Source: Alphaproteobacteria bacterium (lineage in GTDB: Bacteria; Pseudomonadota; Alphaproteobacteria; Rickettsiales; SXRF01). Taken from it: DNA of 64,000 nucleotides. Positions 27,970 to 33,577 of the stretch are shown here, piece after piece. A program made the translations under genes and the position numbers. The notes beneath the pieces are model-generated. The model was given only the letters and a program-made list of their open reading frames with translations, was not told the DNA's origin and did not search any database. The stretch lies in NCBI GenBank assembly GCA_025362975.1, contig JANYES010000019.1, positions 248,001-312,000 on the forward strand. The letters run 5' to 3'. Positions within the stretch are counted from its first letter, which is position 1, and every line of letters begins with the position of its first letter.

Positions 27970-28117
27970 GGTACGGAAAAAGTAAGACCTTTATTATCTT
28001 GTCTGCTTGCCTCAGGAGGCGATAGCTGCTTTCGTAGATTTTAAATCTATCTTTTCAGGATACGTAGGATGGTTCTTGCTTGCCATTTACTAGGTGTGAT
28101 GGCTAATGGGGTAACCC

Positions 28118-28162
28118 TTCGTAATGCGGGGGTCGGGTGTTCGAGTCACCTAGACGGCACCA
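28118..28162 (+). pseudogene. 3' half of split tRNA-Thr(CGU); right boundary of the island
   Basis: After TTCGTAATGC come the anticodon 3' stem, variable loop, T-arm (GGGTG TTCGAGT CACCT) and acceptor strand AGACGGC with encoded ACCA. Joined to 6998-7038 it makes a regular 76-base tRNA-Thr. The bases before the core (GGGGTAACCC) are unrelated to a tRNA, so this half cannot be transcribed as part of a functional gene. Confidence 0.92.
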
Positions 28163-28248
28163 TTTCCTAAAGAAATTACTAAACGATGCGCTCTTTGATA
28201 TGCCTGCGAGGCCTAAACCCGCAGGCTTAGCAACAAACAAAAGAGATA

Positions 28249-28431
28249 CCAGTACAGTACTTGTACCAGGAGTTCTGTAAAACCTAAAAACGGGTGCAGG
28301 ACTATTTCCCTTTGGGGTATTGTATTCGACCTACTCCCAGCATAAGCGGAAGTAGGTCATTCCGATATGAGCCTACTTAAAATCGCAGTTCTTAGGGGAT
28401 TAGTCTCCCCCAAGCGACAAGCTGTAGAGAA
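28249..28431 (+). ncRNA. Candidate structured RNA, copy A
   Basis: About 180 bases align along their whole length with 32951-33139. The conserved blocks include CCAGGAGT, ACGGG-GCAGG, ACTCCC, GAGCCTACTTAAA and ATCGCAGTT. Predicted helices: GACCTACT/AGTAGGTC, and GGGGA/TCCCC near the end. In copy B the equivalent positions change in compensating ways (A-T to G-C and T-A to C-G in the first helix), which supports an RNA structure. No open frame spans it. It has a loose feel of 6S RNA (CCTACTTAAAA-TCGCAG), but I could not establish identity. Strand is assigned from that resemblance only. Confidence 0.55.
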
Positions 28432-28454
28432 CATTGTCCCCCAAGTCAAAGTAC

Positions 28455-28754
28455 TCAGGCTACGAGTTTACGATCTGCAAATAGCAGCACCTTCGTTTCT
28501 TTCAGCTTCATGTTTATCTTCATGCGCTCTCTCTGCGACTCGTGCTTTCTGAGTTCTAGCAATATGTCCTTCATTGCTTCAATGAGAGCACATTCAATTT
28601 CTTTTTTTGTAAGCTCTATTTTGCTTGATATGCCGCATAATTTTTCTTCAAACTCATCCTCTATTTTACACAATATACACTCACTTAAGTGTTTTAGCTC
28701 GAATGGGTTAAGGCCGCTGAAGTTTTCTGCGAATTTCAGATATATTTTACTCAT
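28455..28754 (-). CDS. Hypothetical helical protein
   Basis: 99 residues; AGGGGAG lies at good spacing before the ATG. The protein is mostly helix with a Lys/Glu-rich second half that may form a coiled coil. No family recognised. It lies next to structured RNA copy A and downstream of the dioxygenase gene. Confidence 0.6.
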   Translation of the reverse strand: MSKIYLKFAENFSGLNPFELKHLSECILCKIEDEFEEKLCGISSKIELTKKEIECALIEAMKDILLELRKHESQRERMKINMKLKETKVLLFADRKLVA

Positions 28755-28830
28755 AAGAGACTCCCCTAATACATGTTGTACTCCTTGATTTTCTTATTTT
28801 TATTGTAATTTCTTATTCAGTTATAGCTCG

Positions 28831-29679
28831 TTATGCCTTCAGATTATGCGATGTGACCGCGATATCGGCGCCACTTTTATATTCAGCCAACAGTGCCTGT
28901 TGCGCGTCGGTAAGGAAATCCTCAGCACCCAGGTGATCTTTATTCTCGCCGGTAAGCAGATCGGTGGGGTTATGCCCGAATACCCAGCCAAGATTGGGCT
29001 TATGCACTCCATAGCCCAACAGATGCTGGAGCTTCGTGTCGAATGTCCTGACAACATCGATCGGATAGGAAAGGTACTGATTCTCCGACTGGCGCAGCCA
29101 GCCCAGGCTGTAGCTGATGGTGATACCGGTGCGCGGCTCGTCGGTAATATTGGCGCCGCCCGCGTGTAATAATGAGCCGGCATAGATCAGCACCGATCCG
29201 GGCGGCATTTCCGCATACATGATTTCATTCGGGCTGGGTTGCCTACCTTCCGTCCATTTATGACTTCCCGGCACAATGAGTGTCGCGCCATTCTCCTTCT
29301 TGAAGGCGCTGTATGCCCATAGTGCATTGACCATGAACTCGAAGGGCTTATTCGGCAGCGGGAACATGGCGCTATCGGGATGAATGATCTGCGCCTTCTC
29401 GCCAGGATTTATGCGTATGCCCTGCGTCAGATTAATCTGGATATGGTCGCAATGCTTTCCCAGTATGTGATTCACCAACTGCAGCACCAGATCGTCCGCT
29501 GCCATACGCTGGCAGGTGACCGATTTGGAGAAGAGCGCTTCGATGCGCTTGGTGTTGAATCCGAAGAAAGGGGCTTGGCTATTCGCCCGCTCATCAAAAT
29601 AGGGTTCCAGTTCTTTATGCAGCTGCCGGACAGCCGTAAAGTCGATGGCGTCCTGCAGAATGACATAACCGTTCTTCAT
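28831..29679 (-). CDS. Phytanoyl-CoA dioxygenase (PhyH) family protein
   Basis: 282 residues from the ATG at 29679. It shows the PhyH-type Fe(II)/2-oxoglutarate fold: IIHPDSAMF supplies the His-x-Asp metal pair, SLLHAGGAN the distal His and RTGITISYS the Arg that binds 2-oxoglutarate. These enzymes hydroxylate lipids or small metabolites. Upstream there is GGAGGAG with an ATG at 29740 in a different frame (MKLASFNARK...), so either the 5' end is frameshifted or a leader frame overlaps the gene; the ATG at 29679 has no ribosome site. A lux box lies 54 bases before 29740, so quorum control is likely. Confidence 0.8.
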   Translation of the reverse strand: MKNGYVILQDAIDFTAVRQLHKELEPYFDERANSQAPFFGFNTKRIEALFSKSVTCQRMAADDLVLQLVNHILGKHCDHIQINLTQGIRINPGEKAQIIHPDSAMFPLPNKPFEFMVNALWAYSAFKKENGATLIVPGSHKWTEGRQPSPNEIMYAEMPPGSVLIYAGSLLHAGGANITDEPRTGITISYSLGWLRQSENQYLSYPIDVVRTFDTKLQHLLGYGVHKPNLGWVFGHNPTDLLTGENKDHLGAEDFLTDAQQALLAEYKSGADIAVTSHNLKA

Positions 29680-29793
29680 CAAGAACGGGGATAAGATGAT
29701 CAATATGCGATTTTCTGGCGTTAAAGCTGGCTAATTTCATAGATACTCCTCCACTATGGAGGCATAGCTTTAGCCTTTAAGCAGCATTTCCTC

Positions 29794-29813
29794 ACCTATA
29801 CGTTCGTATAGGT
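29794..29813. promoter_or_regulatory. lux box 1
   Basis: ACCTATACGTTCGTATAGGT, 9-base arms around TT, is the size and form of a LuxR-type binding site. It lies in the divergent gap between the dioxygenase and luxR and is identical to 30673-30692. Confidence 0.9.
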
Positions 29814-29929
29814 TTCATAGAAAACAGCCCGTTCGCCGGTAGCACTTCTTTAATCAAATATCTTTTCAGAGTTGTGTGTTGTTGTGGTATCTTGTTGTTA
29901 CTGCTGCCAAAACTAAATTGTTTGTGCCA

Positions 29930-30670
29930 ATGCTCTTAGAGGAATTCATAAAGCAGACGAATGCGGCGGAAACACCTGACGATGTTTTTGCCTATTACTG
30001 CGATGCCCTGGCAAAACTTGGCTTCGACAAGGTTGTCTATACCCTCATCACCGATCATATGCAGATCAATCGCCGGGCCGGACACGCCGTCAAGGGCAAT
30101 TATCCGGAAGAATGGATGTAATATTACACGGCGAAAGATTATTACAAGATCGATCCGGTCGTGAAATACGCCTTTAGAACCTCCGCGCCTTTTACCTGAA
30201 AGGAAATGGAGCATTCGCGGCTCTTTTCCAGGCAGCAATTACACATCTTATCCGAGGCACAAGAGGCAGGAGTCACCAATGGCGTGGGCGTGCCTCTTTA
30301 CGGCGCAAGGGGCGAAATGGCGGGCGTGGGGCTGGCCAGCAGCGTGCCGGATGTGAATATGGATGCCAACACCCTGTCCAAGCTCAAGCTGCTCACCGAA
30401 CAGTTTCATCTGGCTTATTGTAAAAAGCATCCCACTGTGCCGGAGGAAATCGTACTGCTTTCCGATAGAGAGAACGAAATGCTGAAATGGTGGGCGTCAG
30501 GTAAAACGGCGGCGGAGATAGGAATTATCCTGAATTGCTCCGAGATCAATGTCAAAAAGCATATGCAGAACGTCTATACTAAATTGGGCGTCAATTCAAA
30601 AATAACCGCCATTGTGAAAGCGATCTGGCTGGGGCTTATTCCGTTGGACTGCATAAAGTTCAGGGATTGA
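29930..30670 (+). pseudogene. luxR: LuxR-type quorum-sensing regulator with two nonsense codons
   Basis: Read through, the frame encodes a standard LuxR protein of about 246 residues: autoinducer domain (NYPEEWM, YYKIDPVV, GVTNGVGVPLYG) and C-terminal HTH (LSDRENEMLKWWASGKTAAEI to VKKHMQNVYTKLGV). It is interrupted by TAA at 30119 and TGA at 30197; the TGA lies where the family has a Trp (PFT-W), so TGG changed to TGA. An ATG at 30206 could still make a 154-residue C-terminal piece with intact HTH but no complete signal-binding domain. Confidence 0.88.
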
Positions 30671-30672
30671 AG

Positions 30673-30692
30673 ACCTATACGTTCGTATAGGT
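30673..30692. promoter_or_regulatory. lux box 2
   Basis: An exact second copy of ACCTATACGTTCGTATAGGT, starting three bases after the luxR stop and 53 bases before the luxI start, the position expected for autoinduction of luxI. Confidence 0.92.
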
Positions 30693-30744
30693 GATTTTTC
30701 TTCGAAAATAGTTTTGTTGTCGTGTTGCCCAACCGAGAGGCGAC

Positions 30745-31389
30745 ATGACCATCGAGTGCGTTACCATTGCGACGAACCATTTATTCTCAGGCAACCCTAT
30801 CGCTGCCCAGCATAGGTTGCACTATCGCACGATTATCGAGCGCCAGAGTTGGTCAGTGCCACAGTATGAGCGCATGGAATACGATCAATACGATAATCCC
30901 GCGACCACCTATCTGGTCTGGCGGGATGAGGCGGGAGAGGCCAGAGGGGTTTCCCGGCTTTACCCCACCGACCGGCCATTCATGCTGCAGGAACACTTTA
31001 GCCATATGGTAACCAATGAATCCCTGTCCTGCGGCGCCGATGTGCTGGAGGGATCCCGCTTCTGCATCGACCATACGCTGGAGAGCAAGCAGCGCGAACG
31101 TGTCGCCAGGGAGTTGATCCTGGCGTATCTGGAATTCGGCCTCGATCATAGCATCGCCCGTATCATCGGCCTGATGTACCCCATCTACTGGCGCAATCTG
31201 TTTATCAAGGCCGGATGGCAACCATTCTGGCTGGGGGAAGCCACTGCTACGGATGACGGCAAGCGGGCGCGGGCGGGCGGCGTCATCATCAGCCAGGCGA
31301 ATCTGGATACGGTGCGGAATAATACCGGCATCAGCGAGCGCGTTATTGCCTACGGTGTCAGCGAGAAAAACTATGTTGTGGCAGCTTAG
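30745..31389 (+). CDS. luxI: LuxI-type acyl-homoserine lactone synthase
   Basis: 214 residues. The family makes N-acyl-homoserine lactones from SAM and acyl-ACP or acyl-CoA. Diagnostic parts are the Arg after the start region (RLHYRTI), W near residue 32, YDQYDNPATTYLVWRD, GVSRLYPTDRPFMLQEHF and EGSRFCID. Length matches the family. GAGAGG lies before the ATG and lux box 2 in the promoter. The gene looks intact although its luxR partner is broken, so the cell may make a signal that another regulator reads. Confidence 0.93.
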   Translation: MTIECVTIATNHLFSGNPIAAQHRLHYRTIIERQSWSVPQYERMEYDQYDNPATTYLVWRDEAGEARGVSRLYPTDRPFMLQEHFSHMVTNESLSCGADVLEGSRFCIDHTLESKQRERVARELILAYLEFGLDHSIARIIGLMYPIYWRNLFIKAGWQPFWLGEATATDDGKRARAGGVIISQANLDTVRNNTGISERVIAYGVSEKNYVVAA

Positions 31390-31441
31390 AAGATTTTTGC
31401 ATTAACCTTTATAGGAAACATAAGAACAGGAAGCATAGGAA

Positions 31442-31747
31442 ATGAAAGATAATAAATCGGGCGAGCTCGATGCCGTTATGACGAGCCTGCATTACCTGGA
31501 GTCAGAGGTAAGCAAAGTCGGCCTGAAGGAAGTAAGCGGTATTCTGAAAAAAACCATCAGCGACATTGAAGGGTGGATAAATACCGGTTCGTGCTGCGGA
31601 TCGAACTTCCATGAGATTATCATTGGCTATGAGCTATTCAATATATTAGAATTGCTGCACAAGCTGTCTCAGAATTACAAATATGATTTGGCAGCCATTT
31701 TAAGAGCCATCGAATCTTACACTGCGCAGCAGAAAATGGCTGGCTAA
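31442..31747 (+). CDS. Small helical hypothetical protein
   Basis: 101 residues, AGGAA before the ATG, 52 bases after luxI on the same strand. Predicted helical with two cysteines (SCCGS). No family recognised. It probably shares the luxI transcript. Confidence 0.55.
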   Translation: MKDNKSGELDAVMTSLHYLESEVSKVGLKEVSGILKKTISDIEGWINTGSCCGSNFHEIIIGYELFNILELLHKLSQNYKYDLAAILRAIESYTAQQKMAG

Positions 31748-31964
31748 TATAAAGTAAGCAGCCCTGATGGAAATGCATCCTCATCAGGCGCAAATTCAAC
31801 CGCGGTGACAGACGCCAGATTATCATTCTCAGGCGGGTGTGACTGGATGAACTCCTCAAAAATGAGAAGAGAGAGGTTTTCTATCGCTAAAACTATTATC
31901 ATCGGTACGCTCCAGCATATATACAATCAACACCGCTGCATAAATTAGCAACAGGGTATTGCCG

Positions 31965-32288
31965 TTAGCTCGTCAGATTTTCCAAATCATGCATCGCGGC
32001 GATAATGGCGCGCGGGCGGATTAGTGTACAGGTAGGGTCGAGCGCATCTGCCATATAGTCCTCAAATTTGCAGGCAACGCGCAGTTTCAGCAGGATGCCC
32101 TGCAGGGAGGATAAGGGTTTGCGCAGAAATGCATGCAGCGCTATATTGGATTCCTTTCCTGCCTCGATATAGCGCGGATCGCTTTCGTTATCATGTATTT
32201 CCTCAAAGATCTGGGGTGCCTTGGATTCTGCTGTGCGCCAAGTTTGATATAATTGTTGCAAAACCTCGTCAGCGCAGCCTATCCCCAT
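31965..32288 (-). CDS. Hypothetical helical protein
   Basis: 107 residues with AGGAG before the ATG. Predicted all-helical, no recognised domain or membrane segment. It is isolated by more than 150 bases on both sides. Confidence 0.55.
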   Translation of the reverse strand: MGIGCADEVLQQLYQTWRTAESKAPQIFEEIHDNESDPRYIEAGKESNIALHAFLRKPLSSLQGILLKLRVACKFEDYMADALDPTCTLIRPRAIIAAMHDLENLTS

Positions 32289-32451
32289 CTTGTTGCTCCT
32301 GTTTACAACGTTGACTATTATAGGCCATCTTCGCTCCGATCATCACACCGATGCCTGCGCAAATGCTTCGCATAACGCCCTGGCTAACCACTCCCCATGA
32401 TACCAATACCCATGCGCCACCGTTATAGATGCAGATGTACGCCAGCCCATA

Positions 32452-32889
32452 TCATTCCCCGACGGCCCGATGCATTTCCACGCCCTTCAGATCAAGGAAG
32501 CGAAAAATACCCGCCATGCCAATGACGAGATTGTAAATGCTGTCGCGCAAATCCTGATCGCTGATATCGGCCAGCTGCCGGATCAGATCATGGCTTTGCA
32601 GGTTATTGATGATCTTAAGCCGGTCGCCATTGGCGTTGCCGCCTGACCGCTTGGCATGCTGCTCGTCGTATATGCCGAGGAAAAGGTCATCCACAGCGCA
32701 GTTGAATGCCCGCGCCAGCTGGTACAGTACATGCGATGGTGCGCCGCCACCCGCGAGTACGGTTTTGGCCTGTTGTTTGGTAAGACCGGAAATCTCCGGC
32801 AGATCACTTTCGTGCATATGCGACCGCTCCAGCCGCATCAGCACATTCCTGGCAATGGTCTGATTGAGTAGTTTTTCGTCCGGTTCCAT
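32452..32889 (-). CDS. Xre-like DNA-binding protein
   Basis: 145 residues from the ATG at 32889, which follows GGAGG (an ATG five codons earlier lies inside the hairpin arm). The HTH is LPEISGLTKQQAKTVLAGGG then LYQLARAFNCAVDDLF. The C-terminal 60 residues form an extra helical part. A perfect 16-base inverted repeat ends 15 bases upstream and could be its operator. Confidence 0.7.
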   Translation of the reverse strand: MEPDEKLLNQTIARNVLMRLERSHMHESDLPEISGLTKQQAKTVLAGGGAPSHVLYQLARAFNCAVDDLFLGIYDEQHAKRSGGNANGDRLKIINNLQSHDLIRQLADISDQDLRDSIYNLVIGMAGIFRFLDLKGVEMHRAVGE

Positions 32890-32904
32890 ACTCCCTCCGC
32901 GCAT

Positions 32905-32940
32905 GGTGGTTCCGCGAAGCCGGAGCTTCGCGGAACCACC
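32905..32940. repeat. Perfect 16-base inverted repeat
   Basis: GGTGGTTCCGCGAAGC and its exact complement enclose the loop CGGA. No T-run follows on either strand. It lies between the Xre-like gene and structured RNA copy B and could be a regulator site, a REP-like element or part of the RNA unit. Confidence 0.85.
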
Positions 32941-32950
32941 TGTTAAATAT

Positions 32951-33139
32951 GCACCAACCGCAGCTGGTGCCAGGAGTCGAAAATCGCCGTAAACGGGCGC
33001 AGGCGTATTCCCCTTTCGGGTGTTCTATTCGGCCCACTCCCGACGCAGATGCGCGGAAGCAGGGCTTGAGATACGAGCCTACTTAAATAATCGCAGTTTA
33101 CGGGGATTTTCGACCCCCTCAAGGCACACTGTAGCGTAA
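32951..33139 (+). ncRNA. Candidate structured RNA, copy B
   Basis: Diverged second copy of the repeat at 28249-28431. It opens with the hairpin GCACCA/TGGTGC, then CCAGGAGT, ACGGGCGCAGG and a GGCCC-type helix closing on GGGCT around a CCG-CGC/GCG-CGG stem, then GAGCCTACTTAAA, ATCGCAGTT and the hairpin GGGG/CCCC. Several paired positions differ from copy A in ways that keep pairing. No reading frame spans it. Confidence 0.55.
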
Positions 33140-33238
33140 CTAACTGGTTGAAGTCAAAAGCATGTTTTTATAAAAATTTTATGCTTAAGTGTTATGTGCC
33201 AGGTTGATTAATGGGCGAAATCCAGTTATAGACGGTAC

Positions 33239-33577
33239 ATGCGTCTGGTAAAAAACATTGCTATTATAGTGCTTTCCCTCAGTATTGCTTTGGTCGGGCT
33301 TCCCGCGCAAGCGCATCAGGAATGCCTTGGTAACGGCGATGCCAATCATCATGAAACGCATCACGCTGGTACAACGCAAGCGCATCATGATCATGATAAA
33401 GCGCATGGCGACCATGCAAATTGTTGCCTAAGCTGCAGCACCAGTGCCATTCTACCAAGCGGCACCTTCGCACTTCCCCGTTCAACCGGAACAACGGACA
33501 GCCAATATCCGGCGACACAGACTTTGCTCTCTCGCCTCTTTCAGGCTCAAGACAGGCCTCCCAAACTTTTCTCTTAA
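33239..33577 (+). CDS. Periplasmic His-rich, copper-associated protein (DUF2946-like)
   Basis: 112 residues. A signal peptide ends at PAQAH; the mature part is rich in His (HHETHHAG, HHDHDKAH) and then has CCLSCSTS, a pattern seen in small DUF2946-type proteins near copper genes. It probably binds copper in the periplasm and opens the operon with the multicopper oxidase. Confidence 0.75.
   Translation: MRLVKNIAIIVLSLSIALVGLPAQAHQECLGNGDANHHETHHAGTTQAHHDHDKAHGDHANCCLSCSTSAILPSGTFALPRSTGTTDSQYPATQTLLSRLFQAQDRPPKLFS

What the first reader, a model, noticed from the sequence alone, without database searches (positions are those of the whole stretch)
28249..33139. Two diverged copies of a structured RNA-like element flanking the quorum-sensing genes
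28249-28431 and 32951-33139 align over about 180 bases. Paired positions change together (for example A-T to G-C and T-A to C-G in the helix around 28328-28358 versus 33030-33065), the mark of selected RNA structure. They are in direct orientation and bracket 4.5 kb that could be lost or amplified by recombination. Some motifs recall 6S RNA.
Basis: partly seen in the sequence, partly recalled or inferred. Interest (0 to 1): 0.7.

Follow-up and report, generated by a model that had tools for sequence, protein, structure and literature searches.

The report
C4-like phage immunity RNA, two copies
The two repeats are real RNA genes, but on the opposite strand: they are relatives of a little-understood bacterial RNA family that looks like the antisense RNAs phages use to keep their antirepressor genes off, here in a longer form that carries its own target.

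Summary
The repeats are real (77% over 118 bases, E 3.4e-16) and structured, but the RNA lies on the minus strand and is not 6S. The 3' halves match Rfam sRNA-Xcc1 (RF02221) below its cut-off (47.4 and 35.0 bits against 53). Six more full-length copies (one in this genome, five in relatives) share a TTTGAC promoter and a rod fold whose long helix has 12 of 22 pairs changed on both sides.

sRNA-Xcc1 has been read as an integron-borne, virulence-linked sRNA. Here 130 of 140 distinct members precede an ORF (median 49 nt), and antirepressor families lead among 110 such proteins. RNA loops pair with their own gene's ribosome-binding site (59 of 97 loops, 16.5% in mismatched controls) and with a second target upstream. 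That is the plan of phage P1's C4 antisense RNA, though its Rfam model does not match.

The window copies are a variant: the upstream target is fused to the antisense RNA without a T-run terminator, so rod and C4-like fold exclude each other. No ribosome-binding-site target was found at the window genes. Expression, RNase P processing and action in trans are inferred.

The parts
32960..33122 (-). Copy 2: full-length RNA element (long type), 163 nt; 5' end at about 33121 is a guess from the promoter
   Evidence: 8-copy alignment and rod structure; R1 170.5 bits (the model was built from it)
33128..33157 (-). Copy 2 promoter-like site: TTGACT 33157-33152, spacer 18, TACAGT 33133-33128
   Evidence: TTTGAC and a TA box present upstream of 8 of 8 copies; consensus match 9 of 12 (where the region holds no more such sites than shuffles)
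33096..33118 (-). Copy 2 a1b1-like target arm: a1 hairpin 33118-33102, b1 33103-33096
   Evidence: helix 1 covariation; 14-nt run of pairs with a'; positions
32961..33044 (-). Copy 2 C4-like / sRNA-Xcc1 core: P1 5' strand 33044-33036, P2 hairpin 33021-33010, b' 32994-32987, a' 32985-32977, P1 3' strand 32977-32969, then ACCA 32968-32965
   Evidence: RF02221 47.4 bits, E 2.2e-6, below gathering 53; positions
32905..32940 (-). 36-base hairpin after copy 2, without T-run
   Evidence: sequence
32452..32889 (-). HTH-like gene just downstream of copy 2 (ORF can start at 32904 or 32889)
   Evidence: HTH_26 E 0.002, 18.8 bits, below Pfam cut-off 22; no NCBIfam match
28256..28414 (-). Copy 1: full-length RNA element (long type), 159 nt, the most diverged
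   Evidence: 8-copy alignment; R1 125.3 bits; 5' arm does not prefer its own 3' arm
28421..28449 (-). Copy 1 promoter-like site: TTGACT 28449-28444, spacer 17, TACAGC 28426-28421
   Evidence: conserved in 8 of 8 copies; not listed by the consensus scan
28388..28411 (-). Copy 1 a1b1-like arm: a1 hairpin 28411-28395, b1 28396-28388
   Evidence: b1 still pairs with b' over 9 nt, a1/a' pairing lost
28257..28341 (-). Copy 1 C4-like / sRNA-Xcc1 core: P1 28341-28333 with 28273-28265, b' 28291-28283
   Evidence: RF02221 35.0 bits, E 0.0019, below gathering
28202..28226 (-). Hairpin after copy 1; a terminator-like site also at 28269-28249
   Evidence: sequence; consensus scan, number of sites not above shuffles
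28455..28754 (-). Small protein gene (99 aa) just upstream of copy 1; relatives of it precede 4 of the 8 copies
   Evidence: alignment 22-55% identity; no Pfam or NCBIfam match

Best explanation
Each copy is a minus-strand small RNA gene of the sRNA-Xcc1 kind, and that kind works like the C4 antisense RNA of phages P1 and P7. Supported by sequence: the 3' half resembles sRNA-Xcc1; its specificity segments (b' in the P3 region, a' just before the closing stem) are complementary, in the right order, to a target (a1 in a hairpin, then b1) upstream on the same transcript. In phage and prophage members the same segments also pair with the ribosome-binding site of the antirepressor gene downstream. 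In the window copies the a1b1 target is joined to the antisense RNA without a T-run terminator, so the transcript has two mutually exclusive folds: a rod, in which a1b1 pairs with b'/a', and a C4-like fold closed by a 9-bp stem followed (copy 2) by ACCA. Inferred: RNase P cuts at the 5' side of that stem, as published for C4; the freed RNA binds a1b1 or RBS targets of matching specificity on transcripts of the same locus or of incoming relatives and so gives locus-specific immunity. Copy 2 would be co-transcribed with an HTH-like gene; copy 1 looks autonomous and partly decayed.
For: RF02221 on the minus strand of both. Eight copies, shared promoter, helix 1 with 12 of 22 two-sided pairs; whole structure covariation 0.371 against 0.176 (sd 0.017), 0 of 500 shuffles. 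Family function: 23 members, cognate pairing with the downstream leader and (energy) with the upstream region beats 100000 permutations; 126 segments from a target-blind pattern beat 20000 permutations on both sides; 59 of 97 loops against 16.5% of 376 controls at 0-15 nt before the start codon; antirepressor families lead among 110 downstream proteins. P1 has the same order a1b1 - C4 - target. In this genome three of four loci pair best with their own 5' arm.
Against: Both window copies are below the RF02221 cut-off and RF01695 does not match. The sRNA-Xcc1 fold counted on the 8 copies is not better than shuffles on covariation (46 of 500 reach it), and its P3 helix is paired in only 58% of cells. 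No RBS target was seen at window genes; long types as a set pair only slightly better with their own downstream region (p 0.002). Copy 1 prefers another copy's arm. A same-genus genome keeps the site with the RNA internally deleted, so it is dispensable there. Of 21 long types 5 do have a T-run in the linker, two of them after a hairpin by eye (L042, L045). No expression data.
Confidence: 0.72

Rival explanations
1. Decayed remnants: prophage or island leftovers of a C4-like system that no longer do anything in this host.
For: Copy 1 has lost a1/a' pairing; a same-genus genome has an internally deleted copy at the same place and a more distant one only the promoter and a1b1 arm; no downstream antirepressor in the window.
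Against: Copy 2 keeps a near-perfect arm pairing (-38.4 kcal/mol), promoters are kept in 8 of 8, and two-sided changes across copies point to selection on pairing.
Confidence: 0.2
2. A cis-acting leader (attenuator or riboswitch-like) of the gene downstream, with no antisense role.
For: Four of eight copies, copy 2 included, have a gene start just downstream, an HTH gene in two; two exclusive folds fit a switch.
Against: Four other copies have no such gene and three end in a hairpin with a T-run; the variable segments pair with targets on both sides in the wider family, which a ligand-binding leader does not explain.
Confidence: 0.12
3. One reading: 6S-like RNA on the plus strand, or a repeat acting in recombination of the quorum-sensing block.
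For: Rod-like outline; direct repeats about 4.7 kb apart.
Against: No 6S match up to E 10; promoter, Rfam match and covariation are on the minus strand.
Confidence: 0.03

Closest known systems
sRNA-Xcc1 (Rfam RF02221)
   Same: Core sequence and P1/P2 of the 3' half; minus-strand match to both copies
   Different: Both below the gathering score; the window RNA is about twice as long, with a 5' arm paired to the core; in 129 of 140 compact members a T-run lies in the 110 nt before the RNA, in the window copies none
C4 antisense RNA of phages P1/P7 (RF01695) with its a1b1 targets (RF03163)
   Same: Order a1b1, antisense RNA, downstream target; stem-loop plan; a'/b' segments; closing stem followed by CCA in copy 2 and others
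   Different: No RF01695 match in the window; RF02221 not among matches at P1's C4; target fused to the antisense RNA; no antirepressor downstream
Group 1 sRNAs of Acinetobacter baumannii (PMC5320573, passages only)
   Same: Multi-copy chromosomal C4-like RNAs with a 5' region apparently removed by processing
   Different: Reported there as matching the C4 motif; whether their 5' region holds a paired target was not checked here

Membership tests
sRNA-Xcc1 (RF02221) | Score at or above the gathering cut-off (53 bits) | tested here: not met
   47.4 and 35.0 bits; copy 3 30.8, fourth locus 42.7
sRNA-Xcc1 (RF02221) | Closing stem P1 of 9 bp | tested here: met
   97.2% of cells paired in 8 copies, changes one-sided
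sRNA-Xcc1 (RF02221) | P3 hairpin | tested here: inconclusive
   58.3% of cells paired as drawn by hand
C4 antisense RNA (RF01695) | Match to the Rfam model | tested here: not met
   Not among matches up to E 10 in 28100-33250
C4-type system (works like) | Upstream a1b1 target complementary to a'/b' | tested here: met
   Copy 2 yes; copy 1 only b1/b'
C4-type system (works like) | a2b2 target at the ribosome-binding site of a downstream gene | tested here: not met
   Nothing convincing at the window genes; met in the compact phage family
C4-type system (works like) | Downstream antirepressor gene | tested here: not met
   HTH-like gene after copy 2, none after copy 1; met for many compact members
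C4-type system (works like) | RNase P processing at the 5' side of P1 | not testable with these tools
   Stem followed by ACCA in copy 2, CAAG after the stem as found by the script in copy 1
6S RNA | Match to an Rfam 6S model | tested here: not met
   None up to E 10

The most novel reading that the evidence does not exclude
The sRNA-Xcc1 family as a whole is a second C4-type immunity system of phages, not a virulence sRNA; and alphaproteobacteria carry a form in which antisense and target are one molecule, a self-gated RNA that matures into an immunity RNA only when its target arm is displaced, with several privately matched copies per genome acting as a repertoire against related phages.
Probability: 0.35. 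Interest if true: 0.75.

Novelty: new variant of a known kind. Interest (0 to 1): 0.6.

Why it matters
sRNA-Xcc1 has been discussed as a virulence-linked sRNA with many predicted targets, and its Xylella homologues as RNAs carried in vesicles (PMC2996969, PMC12189769, PMC12444791; passages only). If it is a C4-type antisense RNA, a natural target lies tens of bases away and those target lists need rethinking. It also turns a vague 'structured repeat' into a system with a simple genetic test: swap loops and see whether regulation follows.

Tried and rejected
6S RNA: no match. Plus-strand structure from the two copies: 2 of 38 pairs with a two-sided change. A link from the RNA to the upstream small-protein gene: the 5' arm pairs with that gene's leader beyond shuffles for copy 1 (0 of 500) but not for the other three (0.112, 0.114, 0.246), so dropped. 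Twister-P3, Methylosinus-1 and snoJ33 matches (E 2.4, 5.3, 8.2) were treated as chance. A hairpin that blocks P1 in long types: compact members show up to 9 such paired bases too, so no separate claim.

Limits of the counts. R1 hits of 20-42 bits (12 of 385 genomes, own included) are not all long types: of 19 loci outside the close family I set 13 aside as long types and 6 as terminator or unclear types by eye; a later count of T-runs of 5 or more shows this is imperfect (5 of 21 long types have one, one of five counted 'terminator' loci has none). R1 rewards arm pairing, so one search is partly circular for those 13. and one search used 23 of 43 loci (my core pattern missed 20). One search took the first 110 of 113 ORFs. 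could analyse 14 of 20 copies (6 of 9, 4 of 5, 4 of 6); upstream pairing p 0.002, 0.04 and 0.13 for the three genomes, downstream 0.18, 0.67 and 0.04; the closing stem was probably misplaced in three rows.

Full report
OBSERVATION. The two stretches align over about 180 bases; blastn inside the genome gives 77% over 118 bases, E 3.4e-16. A third copy lies about 100 kb further on the same contig (C20:382651-382822). The strand and the example of covariation in the finding do not hold: on the minus strand the helix near 28328-28358 has no two-sided change in 8 copies (helix 3).

WHAT IT IS. A permissive Rfam scan puts sRNA-Xcc1 (RF02221) on the minus strand of both copies: 33044-32961, 47.4 bits, E 2.2e-6, and 28341-28257, 35.0 bits, E 0.0019, below the gathering score of 53. 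At gathering level only two tRNAs are found in the window. Blastn over 55 relatives finds matches in 4 genomes: full-length copies in three (3 here, 1 and 4) and a 36-base piece in a fourth. All 8 full-length copies have TTTGAC, about 17-18 nt and a TA box just upstream. RNAalifold on the 8 gives a rod of 45 pairs, 14 with a two-sided change. On that MAFFT alignment helix 1 (5' arm with 3' arm) has 12 of 22 pairs with two-sided changes; for the whole structure the covariation score is 0.371 against 0.176 (sd 0.017), 0 of 500 shuffles, and at most 0.102 when partners are slid by 1-3 columns. Helices 2 and 3 have one-sided changes only. The sRNA-Xcc1 fold on the same rows keeps P1 in 97.2% of cells but does not stand out from shuffles in covariation (46 of 500) and pairs P3 in 58.3%.

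TWO CLASSES. Four copies (copy 1, L016, L025a, L026) follow a gene for a protein of about 100 aa without known family, and three of them are followed by a hairpin with a T-run (by eye). The other four (copy 2, L024, L025b, L027) have a gene start just downstream; it is HTH-like in copy 2 (weak, E 0.002) and L024.

WHAT THE FAMILY DOES. Blastn of copy 2 hit two phages and one plasmid in the core only. Each core lies upstream of a KilA-N, ant or BRO gene and scores 72.6-79.7 bits for RF02221. Of ten further phage regions nine carry annotation; in seven the next gene, or the gene overlapping the RNA, is named antirepressor or KilA-N, in two 'hypothetical protein'. In plasmid locus L052 the loop CCUCUGCUUGG faces CCAAGCAGAGG at the Shine-Dalgarno site. 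In a phylum-wide draw RF02221 occurs in 62 of 398 genomes, 39 over the cut-off. For 23 members (of 43 loci tried) cognate pairing with the downstream leader beats 100000 of 100000 permutations; with the upstream region likewise for energy, p 0.006 for run length. A pattern made only of the P2 hairpin, blind to targets, then gave 140 distinct RNAs (199 of 239 stretches read). Of these 130 have an ORF with an SD-like motif a median 49 nt on. For 126 distinct segments cognate pairing beats 20000 of 20000 permutations downstream and upstream, the upstream one more sharply (median rank 4.5 against 35.5 of 126; rank 1 in 30 and 5). Of 97 distinct loops 59 have a run of 6 or more ending 0-15 nt before the start codon, against 16.5% of 376 mismatched pairs. 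Of 110 downstream proteins Pfam finds P22_AR_C in 18, Rha 11, KilA-N 11, AntA 10, Bro-N 10, ORF6N 7, P22_AR_N 5 and SymE 1 (overlapping counts); PHROG anti-repressor families lead. In 11 Xanthomonas members shown, the upstream target tracks the loop by eye while six of them share nearly one leader downstream. In one genome with nine copies all six analysable RNAs rank their own upstream target first (p 0.002); in two others the result is weaker (p 0.04, 0.13).

COMPARISON WITH C4. P1 has C4 (RF01695) and, 67 nt before it, RF03163, 'a1, b1 targets of C4 antisense RNA'. PMC5320573 (passages) describes C4 as three stem-loops, cut by RNase P at the 5' end of P1, with b' over ribosome-binding sites and a' giving specificity. 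The sRNA-Xcc1 system has the same parts in the same order, yet the two Rfam models do not cross-match at the sites tested; phage Aaphi23 carries both at different places. So it works like C4; membership is not claimed. Weinberg 2010 lists C4 and c4-a1b1 (PMC2864571, passages).

THE WINDOW VARIANT. The 5' arm is an a1b1-like target: a G/C hairpin with a1 in its loop, then b1. A T-run of 5 or more lies in the 110 nt before the RNA in 129 of 140 compact members and 20 of 23 of the first set, and in the linker of 5 of 21 long types; neither window copy has one. So target and antisense RNA form one molecule. Own-arm pairing in the 21 long types is -34.0 against -21.5 kcal/mol, 0 of 100000 permutations (partly circular for the 13 found with R1). 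In this genome four loci (these two, copy 3, and a fourth at C16:197977-198061 next to a Phage_integrase gene) have distinct arms; copy 2, copy 3 and the fourth pair best with their own, copy 1 does not. The rod uses both strands of P1 for other partners, so rod and C4-like fold exclude each other; that this gates RNase P is inference.

CONTEXT. In a same-genus genome the copy 1 site has the same upstream genes, an internally deleted RNA and an intact tRNA-Thr. In the window a 3' tRNA fragment at 28118-28168 recurs, 96% over 51 nt, at C20:328002-328052; no tRNA is called at either. This fits island insertion at the tRNA gene beside copy 1.

LITERATURE. sRNA-Xcc1 is described as an 88-nt Xcc sRNA (PMC2996969, passages), as part of the most widespread Xanthomonas cassette, with symE (PMC12444791, passages), and in Xylella as largely vesicle-borne with predicted bacterial and plant targets (PMC12189769, passages; its table also lists C4, unlinked). 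The 2011 paper on its integron origin was not held. No held paper has both sRNA-Xcc1 and antirepressor; sRNA-Xcc1 with prophage gives one paper, seen as a listing only; a four-term search gave none joining Xcc1 to antirepressor or KilA-N. This covers open-licence papers only.

Noticed in passing
window 29876-30670 (+): The luxR-like gene is interrupted by two in-frame stop codons (30119-30121 and 30197-30199); its C-terminal part keeps GerE and Autoind_bind matches. The luxI-like gene at 30745-31389 is open.
   Followed up: partly
window 29794-29813 and 30673-30692: Two identical 20-base palindromes (acctatacgttcgtataggt), lux-box-like by eye, flank the luxR-like gene.
   Followed up: no
window 28455-28754 (-); L016, L025, L026: A family of about 100-aa proteins without Pfam match, often two genes in tandem, found in 4 of 55 relatives; seven of eight places lie beside a full RNA copy and the eighth beside a deleted one.
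   Followed up: partly
L363 about 720-830: Same-genus genome with the copy 1 neighbourhood but an internally deleted RNA: -35 box, 3' arm and end hairpin remain.
   Followed up: partly
L020:1501-1535: A more distant relative keeps a promoter and an isolated a1b1-like arm joined to unrelated sequence.
   Followed up: partly
window 28118-28168: 3' tRNA fragment repeated at C20:328002-328052, a likely attachment-site pair of an island that would hold both copies.
   Followed up: partly
L025: Two RNA copies in one relative stand near an AAA_13 protein and ORFs that look by eye like type I restriction genes; L016 also has an hsdR-like ORF by eye.
   Followed up: no
L084 / L095 (phage Aaphi23): One phage carries both a C4 (RF01695) and an sRNA-Xcc1-type RNA at different places.
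   Followed up: no
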